Shown in pieces: positions 1-54,900 of a stretch of DNA of 64,000 nucleotides (within the stretch, counting starts at the first letter, position 1; each line of letters begins with the position of its first letter). Source of the DNA: Spongilla lacustris (lineage: Eukaryota; Porifera; Demospongiae; Spongillida; Spongillidae); contig OX442415.1 of the NCBI GenBank assembly GCA_949361645.1, positions 14,752,986-14,816,985 of the forward strand. Reading direction: 5' to 3'. Under the pieces are notes generated by a model. It had not been told where the DNA came from. It ran no database searches and was given only the letters and a program-made list of their open reading frames with translations. The position numbers and the translations under genes were made by a program.

Positions 1-2869
1 TGTATACAGGACAAATTTTCATTAAATTATTTCATATCCTAAAAATGTTCAATTGAAGATTTTATAGAAAGAATGGTTCAAGAATTGGTCCAAGATATTT
101 GTAATGTGGCATGTGTAGTCTTTACAGTCATACGTTTTTAATGAAAACTATTTGTGTTGAATTTTGGCATGCTGCAATATAAAAATTTTGCTGCTTTTTA
201 TAACTAGTAGTAATTTATCTGAGGTTTGGGACCTGTTCCGTACCTGAAACTTTCCATATTGCACATATCATCACTGCACAACATGTGTATAAAAAGGTGA
301 GAAAGGTGACCTTTCCTTTCATCACCTTTTCATTTTGTTTCATTGATACAGGAATACCGGAAATAGACTTCTTTACATTCAAGACCCTTAATTGATATTT
401 GTGGATGCAAGGCATGAAAAATGGTATCACCATATGACTGTCATGTACTTTATGATGATTTCTATGTGCCATTGATTCATGACATTTTTATCTATGTTGC
501 CATCTCAATTATATATGCATTTAATCACATACAGACAGTGTTTATTAAACGATCTACCACTGGCTTATTGAACCAGTCACTTCACTGTTCCCTCAAAACT
601 TTCCGCAAAGCTGAAACTGCAATGCATGTTTGGCAGCACACTGTCTTCCAGTTCCTGGCCCACACATATAAAACAAAGTTGCTTTTTTCTCTAAACAGGA
701 GCACTTTTTGCAAAAGAAATAAGCCTTCTTACCACAAACTCCATCACTGTCATCAACCACCACTTTACACTTACCCATCACTGATGCTGTCCCATAACCT
801 GAGCCACGTATTAGTACTGGGCAGTGGTCTGGTACTGAGGGTTCTACCAATTTCTTTGCAGACTCATTCAAACATCTCAAGATCTGTCTGGGCGGAGATA
901 CAGCTGGCCTACATAAGGATATTGATAATGTGTTCACAAATTCTTTCAGTGCTATGTTTGATTCCTCAAAATAGACAAATGCACGGAAAGAATTTACAAC
1001 AGCCATGCCCAATAATGTCTGGAATAAACGAATTCACCAGTCTTTTGTTTGCCATATCTCTTCCAGGCCAAGCAAATGCTGCCGAAGTTGGTTATGAACA
1101 TCGATACAATTTGCACTCTGATAGTATGACTTAACTATATTTGACTGAGAGACTTCCATATATTCTTCACATATCTGACCAGCATCATTCCTGATTCTCC
1201 TCAGCCTCCTCCATGGTTCAGTAGGCAGTGATGTTCCAAAAGTTGAAATGAAAAGTTTCATTACTTTGTTGATTTTGACTGACTTATCATTTAACTTCTT
1301 ACCAGGTTCTTTTTATGCATGTGCTATCAATCATCTTCCATATTGATCTAATGAGTGTAAAGAAAGCACATCACCACGCTTAGAATCAGAGTTAAATGCA
1401 TTATCTTGAAGCCATTTTTTGGGGTAATTAGCAGTAGAATTTTTAATAACTCCAACAAAATACATTCCCATTCTTTGCATAGCTTATGCTGTCTTAACAC
1501 TTGCAAACCATCCATCACCAGCAATACTTCTCTTGGTTCCATGATAGTGTTCAGATAGACGTTGTGTTACAGCAGTAGTTTTCATTTTTGTGTCAGCAAA
1601 ATATTTTTTTTGGGACATATTTTCTGGCTTCTCTTGCAGTTCAATGTTCAGCACTATCCTGCTTTTTGCATCACAAATATTCTTTATCATGAATCCAACT
1701 CCTTCTGGTTTCAGCTTCATTTTTGTCACTTGAGGAACATGATGTTCACTACCCAACCACCGGCTCATGGATTCATCTATGGCTAGTGAGTCTCCCGCAA
1801 CAAATACTGACTCCATATTCTCATTGAATAGCTGGAACAAACATCTTATTCGGTACCATTCATCGGTTTTCTCTGCCTTTTCTGCATTCCCTTCCCAAAA
1901 TGCCAGTGCACCACGAATTTGCTCCCATCTATGCTTACTCATTCCAGTTTTTTCACCAAATCAATTTGCAGTTATAAATCCATCATCCTTTACTTTCCAG
2001 TAATCTTGTATTGTAGTAAGAGGTTCTACAGACATGCCAAGCAAACAGCCAATGAACTGATCCATTTCATCTACATCCAAATTACCATTTTCACCCAGGA
2101 AAGTGTTTGTGTTCTGAATTATGAAGTTTTGCATCTGCTGAGAATACATCAAACGAAAGTAATCAATAACATTCTTACCAAACACTTCTAATCTGCCTTT
2201 GGAAGACGATTGCCAGTTGAGACGAGGCTTAACAGTCACAATATCCTCTATGCTTCTCGGATCGACAGAGTCTAGCGAGGGATCCAATTTCCACACGCGA
2301 TCGCCTACCTTTATAGAGTTGCCTTCACAAACTTCCTGAGGGGCATCCGATGGTTCCTCGTCATCAGTGGAGACCTCTTCTGATGAACTAACTCCATCAG
2401 AATCGTCTGCAGTCTCTTCGCCCACAGATGGAATACTCAAATGTACGCACGTTTTAGCGCGTTTGGAGGGTACGCACTCAGTTTCCCTCCTAAAAATTCG
2501 ATGTTGCGCCGCATACTCTGCCACAAAAGGAGGTTGAAAGGAGGTCCATTCAACACGGTATTTACGCTTTTTCACGAGTCCAAGTAATTTTCCTTCGACA
2601 ATATCACTCTTCCAATTCCGTCCAAAAATCTTTTCCAGTTCACCGTTTTTTGCTACAATTGTACCTTTCGCGTGGATGGCCTGTCCTACCTTCATTCGCG
2701 TTCCATTGATTGTTATACACGACTTACTACGAGAAGGTCCAACTCCATCTTCATCACAACCTGCCATTTTTAGTTCAAGGTTTAACTAGAATAAATGGCT
2801 TCACGCGTTCAAAAATTGTCCCACATAAAGGACAATTGTCCTTTATACAGGACATTGAGTGAATAGGGG
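1..2869 (-). mobile_element. piggyBac-like DNA transposon, left tip outside window
   Basis: The right end is bounded by TTAA (2870-2873), and reading inward on the minus strand the element begins CCCC, as piggyBac elements do. The subterminal sequence TGTATAAAGGACAATT (about 2834-2849, minus) is matched at the left window edge by TGTATACAGGACAA (1-14, plus) in inverted orientation. The left terminal repeat should therefore begin about 20 bases before the window. An 18-base palindrome (2827-2844) lies inside the right end. The element carries a degenerate transposase (593-2767) and is presumably immobile. The TTAA target site is established for the superfamily; the left tip is inferred. Confidence 0.85.
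593..2767 (-). pseudogene. piggyBac-like transposase (DDE_Tnp_1_7), in-frame stops
   Basis: One reading frame runs through the whole locus on the minus strand, starting at an ATG at 2767. It is interrupted by in-frame stops TGA (1961-1963), TAA (1484-1486) and TGA (1034-1036), with further stops near 1310-1340. Family hallmarks are visible: an acidic Ser/Asp/Glu-rich N-terminal region; DESMSRWLG (first catalytic Asp region); KPEGVGFMIKNICD; GDGWFASVKT (second catalytic Asp region); a YPKKW segment just after the TAA stop; and NCIDVHNQLRQ (third Asp region). The C-terminal part is cysteine-rich (GKCKVVVDDSDGVCGKK then FFCKKCSC), as in piggyBac zinc-binding tails. Loss is mainly by nonsense substitution, which suggests moderate age. 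It is a pseudogene as it stands. Confidence 0.9.
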
Positions 2870-2873
2870 TTAA
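2827..2873. repeat. Terminal inverted repeat and TTAA target site of the piggyBac-like element
   Basis: This holds the 18-base palindrome AAAGGACAATTGTCCTTT (2827-2844), then a CCTGTATA-like stretch, then GGGG directly before TTAA at 2870-2873. It marks the outer boundary of the element. Confidence 0.8.
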
Positions 2874-3372
2874 GGTTTTGCATTGAACATTGTATTAGTA
2901 GTTCAATCTGTGTGAATTTCTAACTTTTGGTGTTTATTAGAACATAATTCTTATCAGTTACAGTTGTACAGTTGTACTATTTGGCAGCATGATCTTCTAT
3001 CTTATCATGACCAACAATAAGAGTGATTTATTTACTGAAGTACAATTATAGTGAGGCTATGTGTTTTTAATGCTACACAATTATCTATATACTGATTATA
3101 AACTCAACAAGGATAGTATAATGAAGCATAGTGTTAGCGGTTATGCTAAAGCAAAACTTACTGACATGTTGGATTTGTTGTAGTATATTCGTAAGGGGAG
3201 TTATGCAGCTTATGCTTTACAAATTTCAATCTTTTGGCATTAAAAGCTAGTTTTCTTCAAGTACTAATAGTAACTAACAACAGACTTTATTGGCTTAGGA
3301 ATACAAGTGGGGATCTTAATAGCTTGTCGATGCAGCCAGACACTACTGGAGCACTCTTCAGTGAGTGAACAG

Positions 3373-3404
<32 letters not shown>

Positions 3405-3558
3405 TTAAACTGTTGCCCAACGCACCTATATACACGTGGCTAGCCCCAACATGGCCCATGCTTATTTTATCACAGACAGACACACTAAGGTTAGATTAAA
3501 AAAAGAGTGAAGGAAGATATACAAATAAATCCGTTTTGTAGGATTACACATGCATAAA
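2874..3558. other. Spacer and probable 3' UTR of the 2A-Death gene, with poly-C
   Basis: No coding frame is supported. A 32-base cytosine run occupies 3373-3404. On the minus strand an AATAAA signal (plus TTTATT, 3286-3291) lies about 270 bases after the predicted stop of the upstream gene and is the likely polyadenylation signal. Confidence 0.6.
3286..3291 (-). terminator. Putative polyadenylation signal of the 2A-Death gene
   Basis: AATAAA on the minus strand, in context GCCAATAAAGTC. It is the first canonical signal after the predicted TAA at 3559-3561. Confidence 0.5.
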
Positions 3559-4215
3559 TTATATAATGTACTTACATTTAGCATACATGCAATTTATGGC
3601 AGGTAGATATGCTAAATGATGTTGTTCTGTAACACCAGAATTTGTAATTTATGAATGCATCCTTGTTTCCTTACTTTTAATTCTATTCAGTGGTGTCTAC
3701 AAATCCTTTATGTACTTACCAGTGCTGTCACTCTTAGCATAAGATGTGGTCAACTTTCTAACACCTTGGGCAGCTTCCATGTGTTGCAGTTTTTCAAATA
3801 TGTTAACCAGTTCCCTGTATGTGGCCTTGGGTCCCTTCATTTCCAGCCACTTCTCAAACACTTCATCTCTTTTATTTTGTTCACTGAGCCCTTCATTGCC
3901 AATGATGTCTTTGGTTAGCTGGGGACCTATCAGACGCCTAGCTACTGCCCTCAAATCGAAGCATTGAAATGATGCTATTTCATACAAGTGTTCATGACTG
4001 CATAGCAAGTCCAGAGGGTCTAACGATGCATACATGTACATTATTAAACTAGCTGGTTAGGGTATAGCAGGCACCTTACCTTCACCATGCTGTGCTAAAG
4101 GTCCGGGGTTCACTTCTACATCTCCGGACAATATCAGAAGCTGCCTTATCGTCGACATTAATGACGTAACCACTAAAGACAGTACATGTAGAAACTTCCC
4201 AACTGCTCTGTACAT
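3559..4215 (-). CDS. Three-exon gene: 2A ribosome-skipping leader plus Death-like domain
   Basis: Exon 1 (4215-4080) starts at the only suitable ATG and codes 45 residues. A hydrophobic stretch (FLHVLSLVVTSLM, residues 8-20) leads into LLILSGDVEVNPGP, a full match to the class 2A consensus D(V/I)ExNPG|P; skipping would fall between Gly38 and Pro39. A GTAAGG donor and a 60-base intron follow. Exon 2 (4019-3720, phase 1 in and out) codes a Death-superfamily helical bundle: LYEIASFQCFDLRAVARRLIG, then VFEKWLEMKG, KATYRELVNIFEKL. A GTAAGT donor follows. Exon 3 (3626-3559) is a weaker call and ends at TAA; the total is 167 residues. In sea-urchin and sponge NLR-type proteins, 2A leaders are known to double as signal sequences. 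Here the downstream product would be a Death-domain adaptor of about 129 residues, unless more exons exist. Exons 1 and 2 are strong; exon 3 is tentative. Confidence 0.8.
4099..4125 (-). other. 2A-type translational recoding motif (GDVEVNPGP)
   Basis: Codons 31-39 of the gene read GDVEVNPGP, preceded by the hydrophobic LLILS typical of active 2A peptides. In characterised 2As the ribosome fails to form the Gly-Pro bond and releases the upstream peptide. Activity here is inferred from the perfect motif. The complete reading frame from ATG through the motif to an in-phase splice donor argues against a chance match. Confidence 0.85.
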
Positions 4216-4585
4216 CTGTTATGAGGAGAAATCAGAATAAGCGAAAAACGTATGCACTTGAACACACACCTCGCTAGACCTCGATCGAAGTTTGCTACCA
4301 ACTGCAAATTCTAAACTCATGGACCACTGTTCCAGGCACATCGATATTCTTGCTATTACGTATTTGAGGTTGTCCTGGTAACAACCTCTATCGGATACTT
4401 TGCAGATATCCTTTCCTCTCCACCTTCGCGTCACGTTGGCTGGGCTATGATTCTTGTCCCCGCAGCTAACGTTTCTACGGCTAACAAACGTCCCGATCCT
4501 TGCCCTGTACGTCGCAAGGTCGACTCCCATCTTGCGGCTTGTCTACTCCTTCGCAAAAAACCTTTTCTCCACAACAATATACAAT

Positions 4586-20949: not shown

Positions 20950-21152
20950 GGTGGTAGTGAGGATGACCAGTGGTGGGAAGTGAGGGGTGAGGATGACCAG
21001 TGATGGGAAGTGAGGATGACCAGTGATGGGAAGTGAGGGGTGAGGATGACCAGTGGTGGGAGTGAGGGGTGAGGATGACCAGTGGTGGGAAGTGAGGGGT
21101 GAGGATGACCAGTGGTGGGAAGTGAGGGGTGAGGATGACCAGTGATGAGAAG
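20950..21152. repeat. 30-bp minisatellite, about 7 units (pseudogene copy)
   Basis: The unit is GTGAGGGGTGAGGATGACCA followed by GTGGTGGGAA. It is the same locus as the array of about 33 units in the intact copy (35560-36561). Confidence 0.92.
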
Positions 21153-21160
21153 TGTACTAC

Positions 21161-33946: not shown

Positions 33947-36900
33947 TCACAAGGTGGCCAAGGTTTCCACACACTGCCTGGTCAGAGGGATGATGGCCAC
34001 ACCATTCTTGACGCCCTCCACCTTCCACCAGCGACCAAACCTGTGCTCCTGTGCCACAGCCGCCACCAGGTACCCCCCAGAGTGGGAGAAGGACAGGGAG
34101 TTGACCACACCGGGCTGGGGACGAGGCAACGAAGGAAGACTTAACAAGACAGACAGACAACACAAGGGTGTGCAGCACCAATGGTGGGCGTACAGACAGT
34201 GCTTTTAGCAAGGCAAGCAACCGAATGCTTACCAGAGGGACAGCAAAGCAAGGTTCCAACGACCGAAAAGCATCTCCACATTTCCACAGTCGAACATACC
34301 CGTCACTTGCACCTGAGAGAGGGAAATATGAAGCATCCAAGGCACTCATGCAAAGCATCCATCAACATCACACCCTGGAGATGCTACTAGGCAACATTTT
34401 GACTGCAAAACCAAGACTCCAAAACTTTTAATTCGAAAATGGGTTCTCTAGTGCAAGTACTGCCTTATGCCACACATACACCTACACACCTCACCCCCAA
34501 ACGTAGCTTATAATAATACCTCATGCGTGAGTACTTGCAAGTACTGCCTTATCATATGCCACACCTAATCCCCCCTCCCCCCCCTCAGCCCTTGTACCTG
34601 AGGCAACCAGGTCACTGTTGGGAAGAGCTGCCACTGCAGTAACCCAAGATGGTGGTGCCCCTTCCCTGTCCAGGGACTGTTCCTGGTGGTGCACAGACAC
34701 CAGAGGCTTCTTCTTCACCACGTTCCACAGAGCTATGGTCCTGCACATACCATGAAAGATCAACTAGCTATGGTGTGATATGCACATATGGTGATGTACT
34801 AAAGTTGATTGTTCATGATGTTTTAAAGAGATGTGTGCTAAAAAAAAACACAGAATGTGGAAGTTTATGTCATTGTGGTTGTTCATATGATTTTGTTTCA
34901 TAAGTCTATTGAATAGAGTTGTGGGCAAGTGCAAACAGATCTAGAAACACCCATCACACACATTTGTCACATACCACACACCATCACATCACACAAGTTT
35001 TTCACACATACTACACCCATCACACACCACACTTGTCACACATACCACACCCATCACACCCCACCATACCCATCCTGTGATCCGCTGATGAAGTGTTCTT
35101 CATTGATCATCTTCACACAGTCTATGGAGGACCTAGCCATGTCAAGGGACACACTTGACTCAAACACTTCTTATTTTACACATGCACCACTGTAATATTA
35201 TCAAGACTGCACTATGATCTGTCATAACTACTACTCCTCCACACACCACTCCTCCACACACCTCTCCTCCCCCAGTACCTGTGTCCATTGAAGACCAGCT
35301 GTGACTCCTCCACCACCTTCCATACCCTCAGGGTGCGGTCACTGGTACCAGCAGTCACGGGCCTCTCCCTGCTCAGGCAGTCAATGGCCCCCACGGGGTC
35401 CTGGTGACCAAACCTGAGGGACAGAGGTACCATATAACACACTGAGAGTACGTTGCCATGTAGCGACATAAGGGCACGCAACCAATGATGTTAACCTGAC
35501 ATGACTGTGATACCTCTAACTATGCAATGACAACCCTCATGTTGATAAGGTGGGGGTAGTGAGGATGACCAATGGTGGGAAGTGAGGGGTGAGGATGACC
35601 AGTGGTGGGAAGTGAGGGGTGAGGATGACCAGTGGTGGGAAGTGAGGGGTGAGGATGACCAGTGGTGGGAAGTGAGGGGTGAGGGTGACCAGTGGTGGGA
35701 GTGAGGGGTGAGGATGACCAGTGGTGGGAAGTGAGGGGTGAGGGTGACCAGTGGTGGGAAGTGAGGGGTGAGGATGACCAGTGGTGGGAAGTGAGGGGTG
35801 AGGATGACCAGTGATGGGAAGTGAGGGGTGAGGATGACCAGTGGTGGGAAGTGAGGGGTGAGGATGACCAGTGGTGGGAAGTGAGGGGTGAGGATGACCA
35901 GTGGTGGGAAGTGAGGGGTGAGGATGACCAGTGGTGGGAAGTGAGGGGTGAGGATGACCAGTGGTGGGAAGTGAGGGGTGAGGATGACCAGTGGTGGGAA
36001 GTGAGGGGTGAGGATGACCAGTGGTGGGAAGTGAGGGGTGAGGATGACCAGTGGTGGGAAGTGAGGGGTGAGGATGACCAGTGGTGGGAAGTGAGGGGTG
36101 AGGATGACCAGAGGTGGGAGTGAGGGGTGAGGATGACCAGTGGTGGGAAGTGAGGGGTGAGGATGACCAGTGGTGGGAAGTGAGGGGTGAGGATGACCAG
36201 TGGTGGGAAGTGAGGGGTGAGGGTGACCAGTGGTGGGAAGTGAGGGGTGAGGGTGACCAGTGGTGGGAAGTGAGGGGTGAGGGTGACCAGTGGTGGGAAG
36301 TGAGGGGCGAGGATGACCAGTGGTGGGAAGTGAGGGGTGAGGATGACCAGTGGTGGGAAGTGAGGGGTGAGGATGACCAGTGGTGGGAAGTGAGGGGTGA
36401 GGATGACCAGTGGTGGGAAGTGAGGGGTGAGGATGACCAGTGGTGGGAAGTGAGGGGTGAGGATGACCAGTGGTGGGAAGTGAGGGGTGAGGATGACCAG
36501 TGGTGGGAAGTGAGGGGCGAGGATGACCAGTGGTGGGAAGTGAGGGGTGAGGATGACCAGTTAGAGGATAGTTAAGCTTAGAGCATAGTAAAGTTAGTCA
36601 TCCCATGATCTATTTAGGGGGTAAGGGGACTCACAATGTTTCCACGTAAACCATCTCACTGAGGTTCCATATCTTGACAGTCCTGTCAAATGAACAGCTG
36701 AACAGTTGGTGTGTGCCCCTTTGGAACACCAAACCCTGCAGAACAGACGGTAGTAACCATTGGTAACCATCTCACAACAAATGCAGGCAACGTGGCTCAC
36801 GGTGATGGCTTGGTTGTGGCCCCTGAAGGTGTGGACATGAAGGCTGGTGGGCCCCTCCCAAATATGGATGACCTTGTCCTGACCACCAGTGGCCTGGGTA

Positions 36901-51900: not shown

Positions 51901-54900
51901 CCCTGAAAATAAAAGGAGACAATGAACGGTCCAATCTGGTCACTAACAACAAGATTGTAAAAGCCTTGTTATGCAATACTGTGTAATTTCATACAACTAA
52001 ATGAACTATGAACCTACCATCCCCACAACTGGCCAATCCCCACAAATAGACCATCCCCACAACTAGACCATCCCCACTAATAGACCAACTACCATTCACA
52101 TCATCAACATGCTATCATACAGACCACTTGGTGCTTATGTCATGGCATGGTGATACAAAGCCTCCCTAATGACCCGCAAGGCAATACATTGTATACATGA
52201 TGTCATCATAATCAAGTGGTCTATATGTGTGATCTATGCACACTAGCTTCTACACATGTAACCATAATCAATACTAGGTTTTGTGACTTTGGTTCCATTC
52301 CTCCTCTACCTCCACCCTCTACACCTTACCTCCAACTTCCTCCAACACCTTCACCCACCTCGTTCTACACACCTCCCCCTCCCTCTATACCTCCTACTAC
52401 CACCTTCCATCTACACACCTCCCTCCTCCCTCTACACACCTCCCTCCTCCCTCTACACACCTTCCCTCCTCCCTCTAAACACCTTCCCTCCTCCCTCTAC
52501 ACACCTTCCCCCTCCCTCTACACACCTCCCTCCTCCATCTACACACCTTCCCCCTCCATCTACACACCTCCCTCCTCCATCTACACACCTCTCTCCTCCA
52601 CCTACACACCTCCCTTCTCCATCTACACACCTCCCTCCTCCATCCACACACCTCCCTCCTCCATCCACACACCTCCCTCCTCCATCCACACACCTCCCTC
52701 CTCCATCTACACACCTCCCTCCTCCATCTACACACCTCCCTCCTCCATCCACACACCTCCCTCCTCCATCTACACACCTCCCTCCTCCATCTACACACCT
52801 CCCTCCTCCATCCACACACCTCCCTCCTCCATCTACACACCTCCCTCCTCCATCCACACACCTCCCTCCTCCATCTACACACCTCCCTCCTCCATCTACA
52901 CACCTCCCTCCTCCATCTACACACCTCCCTTCTCCATCTACACACCTCCCTCCTCCATCCACACACCTCCCTCCTCCATCTACACACCTCCCTCCTCCAT
53001 CTACACACCTCCCTCCTCCATCCACACACCTCCCTCCTCCATCTACACACCTCCCTCCTCCATCCACACACCTCCCTCCTCCATCTACACACCTCCCTCC
53101 TCCATCTACACACCTCCCTCCTCCATCTACACACCTCCCTCCTCCATCCACACACCTCCTCCATCTACACACCTCCCTCCTCCATCCACACACCTCCCTC
53201 CTCCATCCACACACCTCCCTCCTCCATCCACACACCTCCCTCCTCCATCTACACACCTCCCTCCTCCATCCACACACCTCCCTCCTCCATCCACACACCT
53301 CCCTCCTCCATCTACACACCTCCCTCCTCCATCTACACACCTCCTTCCTCCATCCACACACCTCCCTCCTCCATCTACACACCTCCCTCCTCCATCTACA
53401 CACCTCCCTCCTCCATCTACACACCTCCCTCCTCCATCTACACACCTCCCTCCTCCATCTACACACCTCCCTCCTCCATCCACACACCTCCTCCATCTAC
53501 ACACCTCCCTCCTCCATCCACACACCTCCCTCCTCCATCCACACACCTCCCTCCTCCATCTACACACCTCCCTCCTCCATCCACACACCTCCCTCCTCCA
53601 TCCACACACCTCCCTCCTCCATCTACACACCTCCCTCCTCCATCTACACACCTCCTTCCTCCATCCACACACCTCCCTCCTCCATCTACACACCTCCCTC
53701 CTCCATCTACACACCTCCCTCCTCCATCTACACACCTCCCTCCTCCATCCACACACCTCCCTCCTCCATCTACACACCTCCCTCCTCCATCTACACACCT
53801 CCCTCCTCCATCCACACACCTCCCTCCTCCATCCACACACCTCCCTCCTCCATCCACACACCTCCCTCCTCCATCCACACACCTCCCTCCTCCATCCACA
53901 CACCTCCCTCCTCCATCTACACACCTCCCTCCTCCATCTACACACCTCCCTCCTCCATCTACACACCTCCCTCCTCCATCCACACACCTCCCTCCTCCAT
54001 CTACACACCTCCCTCCTCCATCTACACACCTCCCTCCTCCATCTACACACCTCCCTCCTCCATCTACACACCTCCCTCCTCCATCCACACACCTCCCTCC
54101 TCCATCTACACACCTCCCTCCTCCATCCACACACCTCCCTTCTCCATCTACACACCTCCCTCCTCCATCTACACACCTCCCTCCTCCATCCACACACCTC
54201 CCTCCTCCATCTACACACCTCCCTCCTCCATCCACACACCTCCCTCCTCCATCTACACACCTCCCTCCTCCATCCACACACCTCCCTCCTCCATCTACAC
54301 ACCTCCCTCCTCCATCTACACACCTTCACTCCACACACCTTCCCTCTCCTTTCCCTACGTCCAATGCTCACACTTAGTCACTGTGCAGTCCTTAGATCCA
54401 GAGTAGACATACTTTTCATCTGGCGTTATGGCAACGCAAGTCAGTGGGAGCTGATGTCCTTTGAAGAAGCGTATGGCAGAAGGATCAGGAGGAACATACT
54501 GTAAAGAGAAACACGGATTGGAGGGAAGAGTCAAAATGGAGATGTTAGGAACATACTGTAAAGAGAAGCACGAATCAGTTGGAAGAGTTACCATGGAGAT
54601 GTTATAAATATAAAGCCGCTCATGTGATCAGCACATTATATGGATGTCAATAACAATGCACTGCGATTTTGGGACTACATGTCTAGCCATACACTGGATA
54701 TACATGTATGACAGCACACAAAGCTACAGCTAGCAGGCCAGGACATAAATGAGGTTATACTTATTAAGGAGTGCCAATAGTATCAACGACATCATGTAAC
54801 CTTTGCATTGGGCAGTTCTGCACAAATATCTGCATAAAAATATAGCTCACTACAGAACAGCCCACGTATACTCCCGGTCACCTTCATGCAGCTGGTACGT

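What the first reader, a model, noticed from the sequence alone, without database searches (positions are those of the whole stretch)
3559..4215. Virus-like 2A ribosome-skipping leader spliced to a Death-domain exon
Seen directly: an ATG opens a 45-codon exon ending LLILSGDVEVNPGP then LAQHGE and a GTAAGG donor. After a 60-base intron, phase-matched, comes a Death-superfamily domain, and an AATAAA lies about 270 bases after the stop. Established: 2A (D-V/I-E-x-N-P-G|P) causes ribosome skipping, and N-terminal 2As in sea-urchin and sponge NLR-type proteins can double as signal peptides. Inference: one mRNA would give a short hydrophobic peptide plus a free Death-domain adaptor starting with Pro. 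Skipping efficiency could also switch the adaptor between secreted/ER and cytosolic pools. A stand-alone 2A-Death mini-gene is, as far as I know, not a standard described architecture.
Basis: partly seen in the sequence, partly recalled or inferred. Interest (0 to 1): 0.93.

Follow-up and report, generated by a model that had tools for sequence, protein, structure and literature searches.

The report
Immune-receptor genes carrying virus-like 2A splitter
This stretch is likely the front end of a sponge-type NACHT immune-receptor gene, in which a virus-like 2A motif, intact in all 25 related genes that could be checked, would make ribosomes release a conserved 125-residue front piece and then a separate Death-NACHT protein.

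The parts
4270..4530 (-). Exon 0: 87 codons, MGVDLATYRARIGTFVSRRNV..., conserved N-terminal exon; ATG context AAGATGG; donor GAG|GTGTGT
   Evidence: alignment of 17 of the 20 C1 loci; 26 genome matches; dN/dS 0.24-0.31 against the other subfamily, codons 1-21 near 0; Ephydatia protein records start with it
4080..4215 (-). Exon 1: hydrophobic segment plus 2A (RQLLILSGDVEVNPG|P) and LAQHGE; acceptor TAACAG, donor GTAAGG, phase 1
   Evidence: dN/dS 0.11-0.34 over the last 22 codons in eight pairs; 25 of 26 exon-0 copies followed by an exact 2A, the other by a run of N
4100..4122 (-). 2A core DVEVNPGP (pattern match; the last base of the final codon is not included)
   Evidence: exact pattern match at genome C1:14757085-14757107
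3720..4019 (-). Exon 2: first Death domain, phase 1 at both ends, donor GTAAGT
1..3719 (-). Intron between exon 2 and exon 3 of the model; the model's later exons lie outside the window: linker at genome C1:14752162-14752067, linker 14751519-14751427, Death 14751213-14750938, NACHT exon 14748619-14747017, last exon from 14746962
   Evidence: NACHT 83.1 bits and second Death 23.2 bits, both over the Pfam cut-off
1..2869 (-). Transposon with a DDE_Tnp_1_7 transposase (piggyBac type, name recalled), frame broken, inserted at a TTAA in that intron; its far end lies outside the window; sister copy L013 lacks it
   Evidence: Pfam 28.0 and 76.3 bits on two separate pieces, a third piece matched nothing; empty site in L013
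3559..3626 (-).

Best explanation
The finding is likely the front of an NLR-like gene whose single reading frame would be split by a 2A (StopGo) motif into two proteins: a conserved ~125-residue front protein and a ~825-residue Death-Death-NACHT receptor that begins with proline. The motif, its position between a conserved upstream exon and the Death exon, its intactness across paralogues and its concentration on one group of similar NACHT exons are shown by the sequence. The splice joins are predicted from GT/AG sites at the edges of conserved blocks and from annotated Ephydatia proteins; no transcript was seen. That ribosomes skip the Gly-Pro bond here is inferred from the motif. Inferred further: the front protein ends in a hydrophobic stretch 9 residues from its new C-terminus, so it may sit on a membrane as a tail-anchored protein, while the receptor is cytosolic. 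When skipping fails, the same stretch would act as an internal anchor and tether the receptor to the ER.
For: Gene model: 8 exons, GT/AG at every join, intron phases 0,1,1,1,1,1,2, one open frame of 949 codons. Exon 0 is protein-coding: dN/dS 0.24-0.31 in five comparisons of the window copy with the other subfamily, and zero to one amino-acid change in codons 1-21 against 3 to 6 synonymous ones in seven pairs. Independent support: six Ephydatia protein records (two of them nearly identical) share the N-terminus, 2A region and NACHT; Death passes its cut-off in all five that I scanned. 2A kept: 25 of 26 exon-0 copies, the other blocked by a run of N; the 22-codon 2A segment has dN/dS 0.11-0.34 in eight pairs. 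Association: 23 of 23 NACHT exons of the same group have their own 2A within 36 kb upstream on the same strand (22 within 30 kb), against 2 of 50 weaker NACHT matches. NACHT within 30 kb downstream for 24 of 49 2A sites against a random mean of 0.52 and a maximum of 4 in 1000 trials; upstream control 1, opposite-strand control 1. Hydrophobic segment 9 residues before the 2A end in the window gene and three Ephydatia proteins measured. SpNLR2A6, a sea-urchin NLR leader, skips in reporter assays (PMC4981915; abstract, passages, sections 4 and 9 read).
Against: No RNA or translation data. I chose the splice sites, so GT/AG at every join is a condition of the model rather than a test. No exon was sought in the 2.3 kb between the second Death and the NACHT exon beyond the tblastn, and the two linkers may be alternatives. 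The hydrophobic segment is only moderate in the window gene (19-mer Kyte-Doolittle mean 1.82), so membrane roles are weak inference. One Ephydatia record (P0007) has GNVEMNPGP, an altered motif. Exon 0 has no confident fold (AF2 pLDDT 64), and outside codons 1-21 it is less constrained (dN/dS 0.28-0.70 in seven pairs). 25 of 49 2A sites showed no NACHT within 30 kb in the capped search, and 11 of 49 showed no Death match, several of them with little sequence read, so the rule is firm for the NACHT group, not for every 2A copy. For one group member, C3:1275636, the 2A is 35 kb away with fragments of another such NACHT exon in between, so it may belong to that other gene.
Confidence: 0.78

Rival explanations
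1. A short isoform or stand-alone gene: transcription ends in the intron at the reader's exon 3 and AATAAA, giving a 2A-released Death-domain adaptor without NACHT.
For: The exon 3 splice is in phase and an AATAAA follows. Both remain in copy L012; in L013 the acceptor AG and the AATAAA remain although the bases before the AG changed. Three DVEENPGP-type 2A-Death loci show no NACHT exon in the 6 kb read (by eye, and none in the list).
Against: No protein-level match in the other paralogue groups (open frames under 18 residues not queried); AATAAA lost in L011; the Death exon ends in a phase-1 donor that joins in phase to a conserved linker exon; in the three NACHT-less loci checked, the Death exon also has a GT donor near its end.
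Confidence: 0.1
2. A sea-urchin-type 2A signal leader: translation starts at the ATG at 4215, and 2A works as an N-terminal signal sequence that is skipped or kept, giving cytosolic or secreted receptor.
For: The ATG exists in L011-L014. 12 of 14 sea-urchin N-terminal NLR 2A sequences were predicted signal sequences, and SpNLR2A6 was tested (PMC4981915, sections 4 and 9 and passages read).
Against: Nine paralogues (L020-L028) have ATA at this codon, exon 0 is conserved and in frame, and the Ephydatia records start with exon 0. ATG context is CAGATGT against AAGATGG at exon 0.
Confidence: 0.08
3. A relic: NPGP is kept by recent duplication, and the ribosome does not skip here, so one fused protein is made.
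For: Many copies are recent duplicates (for L011, L012, L014); no activity data; one Ephydatia record has an altered motif.
Against: 2A codons vary synonymously while the residues stay, and the motif is kept in five of six Ephydatia records despite 36-43% identity over the N-terminal region.
Confidence: 0.04

Closest known systems
SpNLR2A: sea-urchin NLR proteins with N-terminal 2A-like sequences (Roulston et al. 2016, PMC4981915)
   Same: 2A at the front of a NACHT protein family; many members (85 of 241 NLRs in the passage read)
   Different: There the 14 listed 2As are 26-residue N-terminal sequences, one shown to act as a signal sequence; the passage says others lie within the N-terminal region. 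Here 2A follows a conserved 87-codon exon and would release a ~125-residue protein.
Sponge Death-NACHT(-LRR) receptors (NLRD; Dysidea avara survey, PMC12909245, 12 passages read)
   Same: Death plus NACHT; NLR expansions that group mostly by species; that paper also reports some NLRs with transmembrane domains
   Different: No 2A or upstream polypeptide appears in the passages read. The present model has two Death exons, and no LRR was found in it or in the five Ephydatia records scanned.
Ephydatia NACHT protein records Em0001g2612a, Em0001g2569a, EMCRGX_G002758, Em0001g1739a, EMCRGX_G002839, Em0001g1731a (the two EMCRGX records name Ephydatia muelleri; the Em000 ids are read as the same species)
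   Same: Same N-terminus, 2A region, Death, NACHT; five of six end at the same place as the model
   Different: One Death domain each in the five scanned; one has an altered 2A (GNVEMNPGP) and one gene model continues into a reverse-transcriptase-like stretch (Pfam RVT_1 below its cut-off). Em0001g2569a and EMCRGX_G002758 are nearly identical, probably one gene.
Viral 2A/StopGo peptides (D-V/I-E-x-N-P-G|P)
   Same: Core motif and leucine-rich lead-in (general knowledge, recalled)
   Different: Located in a host gene family; activity here untested.

Membership tests
2A / StopGo element | D(V/I)ExNPGP core at the end of a ~20-25-residue leucine-rich stretch | tested here: met
   RQLLILSGDVEVNPGP; exact match among 49 genome sites, reversed control 0
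2A / StopGo element | Purifying selection on the motif | tested here: met
   dN/dS 0.11-0.34 over 22 codons in eight pairs; 25 of 26 exon-0 copies intact, one in a run of N
2A / StopGo element | Separated translation products | not testable with these tools
   needs in-vitro translation
Death domain | Death fold | tested here: met
Death domain | Pfam PF00531 gathering score | tested here: not met
   17.5 bits against 22.6 for the window exon alone. Paralogue exons of the same type pass, e.g. 31.7-37.7 bits; second Death exon of the same gene 23.2; Ephydatia Death 23.2-31.3 in five records.
Bona fide NLR | NACHT domain | tested here: met
   83.1 bits against 26.7, same strand, 9 kb downstream of the 2A
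Bona fide NLR | C-terminal LRRs | tested here: inconclusive
   Crude motif scans of about 6 kb downstream found none; the five Ephydatia records scanned show no LRR family. Hence called NLR-like.
Sea-urchin-type 2A signal leader | 2A at the extreme N-terminus | tested here: not met
   87-codon conserved exon 0 precedes it
Stand-alone 2A-Death mini-gene | Gene ends after the Death exon | tested here: inconclusive
   In-phase conserved exons lead on to NACHT, which speaks against it; a short isoform is not excluded without RNA
piggyBac transposon (intron insertion) | DDE_Tnp_1_7 transposase and TTAA target | tested here: met
   28.0 and 76.3 bits on two of three pieces; TTAA at the 5' boundary and in the empty site. 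That this Pfam family marks piggyBac is recalled.

The most novel reading that the evidence does not exclude
A sponge immune-receptor group is built as a two-protein unit: a virus-like StopGo site co-expresses, in fixed stoichiometry, a front protein with a hyperconserved N-terminus and a hydrophobic C-terminal end, and its own Death-NACHT receptor. The front protein would be a dedicated partner, such as a membrane guard, chaperone or inhibitor, and the unit would be older than the split from Ephydatia.
Probability: 0.4. Interest if true: 0.8.

Novelty: new variant of a known kind. Interest (0 to 1): 0.6.

Why it matters
2A elements are mostly known from RNA viruses and retrotransposons; host uses are few (general knowledge; PMC11512398, passage read, names NLRs as the cellular case). 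Here a whole group of NACHT genes keeps one, and so do five of six related Ephydatia records. If it works, these animals use ribosome skipping to make an immune receptor together with a separate conserved companion protein. That gives a concrete, testable host function for 2A, and a new kind of partner for NLR-type receptors. It also warns that reading the 2A exon as a signal leader misses the companion.

Tried and rejected
Stand-alone mini-gene: rejected as the main reading, not excluded as an isoform (see rivals). Retrotransposon origin of exon 0 plus 2A: of the 26 exon-0 matches in the genome, 25 lie beside a 2A and one beside a run of N. A search with residues 1-60 of P0005 returned only P0005 and P0007 at E up to 10, so no retrotransposon relative was seen; that search is limited to proteins of 651-2072 residues that share 5-letter words, and it did not even return the other four Ephydatia records. 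Fold of exon 0: AF2 gave pLDDT 64 with one long helix; not searched further. LRR search: crude, nothing convincing. The Death-family alignment was not accepted as a genome query, so the Death tally rests on the capped Pfam list (150 of 405 candidates scored) and on tblastn in fetched loci. No tree of NACHT exons was built; the group of 23 is defined by identity (55% or more over at least 400 residues, where 84 of 136 candidates were scored). Thirteen of the 86 rows (short fragments or second pieces) were left out of the 23-versus-50 count; the 36 kb limit was set to include the 35 kb case.

Papers: no report of 2A in sponge NLRs turned up in searches. Two papers that might mention it (Odon 2013, Yuen 2014) are not held, so absence from print is not shown.

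Errors corrected: one search used exon-1 ends that broke the frame (fixed). One search printed nothing because of a wrong option (redone). One search's 27-codon exon-1 comparison was one codon out of register for L011-L014 against the others (redone over 22 codons). One search had wrong coordinates (redone).

Full report
What was checked. The window is C1:14752986-14816985 of a 248.6 Mb genome in 51 contigs. The proteins found with the N-terminal query carry Ephydatia muelleri names or Em000 ids that I read as that freshwater sponge, so the animal is likely a sponge; no tool names it.

The gene is larger. A Pfam NACHT match lies on the same strand beyond the window edge. With the adjacent DNA fetched, open frames were compared with 14 paralogue loci. 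Conserved blocks are, in order: an upstream 87-codon frame, the 2A exon, the Death exon, a linker found twice, a second Death exon, a 1603-base NACHT exon and a short last exon. Joining them at GT/AG sites gives one open frame of 949 codons in 8 exons with intron phases 0,1,1,1,1,1,2. I chose the sites, so this shows that a consistent model exists, not that it is transcribed. The DNA then reads ESLE followed by TAA; five of six Ephydatia records end at that place, four with SLE and one with SLK.

Exon 0. In an alignment of 17 of the 20 C1 loci (L009, L010 and L015 left out) the block starting at the ATG is conserved, followed by a GT donor, and the 2A exon follows an acceptor; L019 is N through most of exon 0, and in L017 the acceptor position differs. 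dN/dS is 0.24-0.31 in five comparisons of the window copy with the other subfamily, and 0.24 and 0.41 within that subfamily. Codons 1-21 have 0 or 1 amino-acid change against 3-6 synonymous ones in the seven pairs; the rest of the exon has dN/dS 0.28-0.70. In 24 aligned sequences (19 of this genome, 5 of the 6 Ephydatia records) MGVDLATYRARIGTF is nearly invariant except at T14 (one row starts later because its match is partial). The six Ephydatia records begin with it, TF being SF in two.

2A. 49 exact DVExNPGP-coding sites exist, reversed pattern 0; 5 DIE-type sites, reversed 0. Starting from exon 0, which does not use the motif, 25 of 26 copies have an exact 2A close by and one runs into a run of N. 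Over the last 22 codons of the exon dN/dS is 0.11-0.34 in eight pairs. The motif is present in five of the six Ephydatia records and altered to GNVEMNPGP in P0007.

Association. 24 of 49 2A sites have a NACHT within 30 kb downstream on the same strand without another 2A between. Searching with the NACHT exon, 23 places match at 55% identity or more over at least 400 residues. All 23 have a 2A of their own within 36 kb upstream, 22 of them within 30 kb. The last, C3:1275636, is 35 kb from its 2A with fragments of a similar NACHT exon at C3:1298042-1298605 in between, so that 2A may belong to another gene. Of 50 weaker matches (23-35% identity) counted the same way, 2 have a 2A upstream. Thirteen shorter or second pieces were left out of both counts. 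Death matches lie downstream of 38 of 49 sites, exon 0 upstream of 25, either at 45; 43 of 49 sites were fetched, 23 of them with about 400 bases or less downstream in that fetch. Three loci without a NACHT were read for a further 6 kb. By eye, two hold transposon-like frames and none a NACHT exon; their Death frames also contain a GT donor near the end. Whether they are true 2A-Death genes is open.

A transposon whose frame is broken (two of three pieces match DDE_Tnp_1_7) sits at a TTAA in the intron after the Death exon. The sister copy L013 lacks it, and the NACHT exon is outside the window.

Mechanism. Shown: order of parts, conservation, concentration on one NACHT group. Predicted: splice joins. 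Inferred: skipping, giving a ~125-residue front protein and a ~825-residue receptor starting with Pro. The most hydrophobic 19-mer ends 9 residues before the front protein's end in the window gene and in the three Ephydatia proteins measured (means 1.82-2.52); tail anchoring is a guess from this. The dual-targeting idea comes from sea urchin (PMC4981915), where a leader mutated to block skipping sent a reporter mainly to the Golgi.

Known and new. Sea-urchin NLRs with 2A are published (PMC4981915: abstract, passages, sections 4 and 9 read; PMC12846837 repeats the point in the one passage read; PMC11512398 mentions NLRs in a passage read). New here, as far as my searches reach: a sponge-type group in which 2A follows a conserved separate protein rather than serving as the N-terminal leader.

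Noticed in passing
window 1-2869 (minus): Transposon with DDE_Tnp_1_7 pieces (piggyBac type) in the intron of the receptor gene, in a span shared with copies L011 and L012 and absent from L013, so it predates some of the duplications.
   Followed up: yes
L055, L056, L057, L058 (C1:6194780, C5:265160, C10:8724616, C17:4073019) and C1:6274373 (not fetched): Five DIE-type 2A sites. Four code for DIEENPGP; the three of these that were fetched show a short hydrophobic lead-in (e.g. MATQLISLLLLMAGDIEENPGP) and look like another gene family.
   Followed up: partly
L033/L061, L044/L059, L045/L060: DVEENPGP-type 2A-Death loci with no NACHT exon seen in the 6 kb read after the Death exon; what follows is unknown.
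   Followed up: partly
P0007 (Em0001g1731a): Natural 2A variant GNVEMNPGP beside the closely similar P0005 with GDVEMNPGP: a ready pair for testing loss of skipping.
   Followed up: no
P0005, after its KLPNVESLE: The gene model runs past the usual C-terminus into a reverse-transcriptase-like stretch (RVT_1 match at 814-875, below cut-off), probably a fused model.
   Followed up: no
window 3373-3404: Run of 32 C on the plus strand inside the intron; the matching stretch differs in length among the four close copies.
   Followed up: no
window 52364-54325: About 93 copies of a 21-base C/T-rich unit; GC skew -0.925 over 52001-54000.
   Followed up: no
window 35559-36561 and 20957-21154: The same 30-base unit (GTGAGGATGACCAGTGGTGGGAAGTGAGGG) forms arrays at two places in the window.
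   Followed up: no
L020-L028, start of the 2A exon: Tandem CAGCAG acceptor, which would add or drop one glutamine.
   Followed up: no
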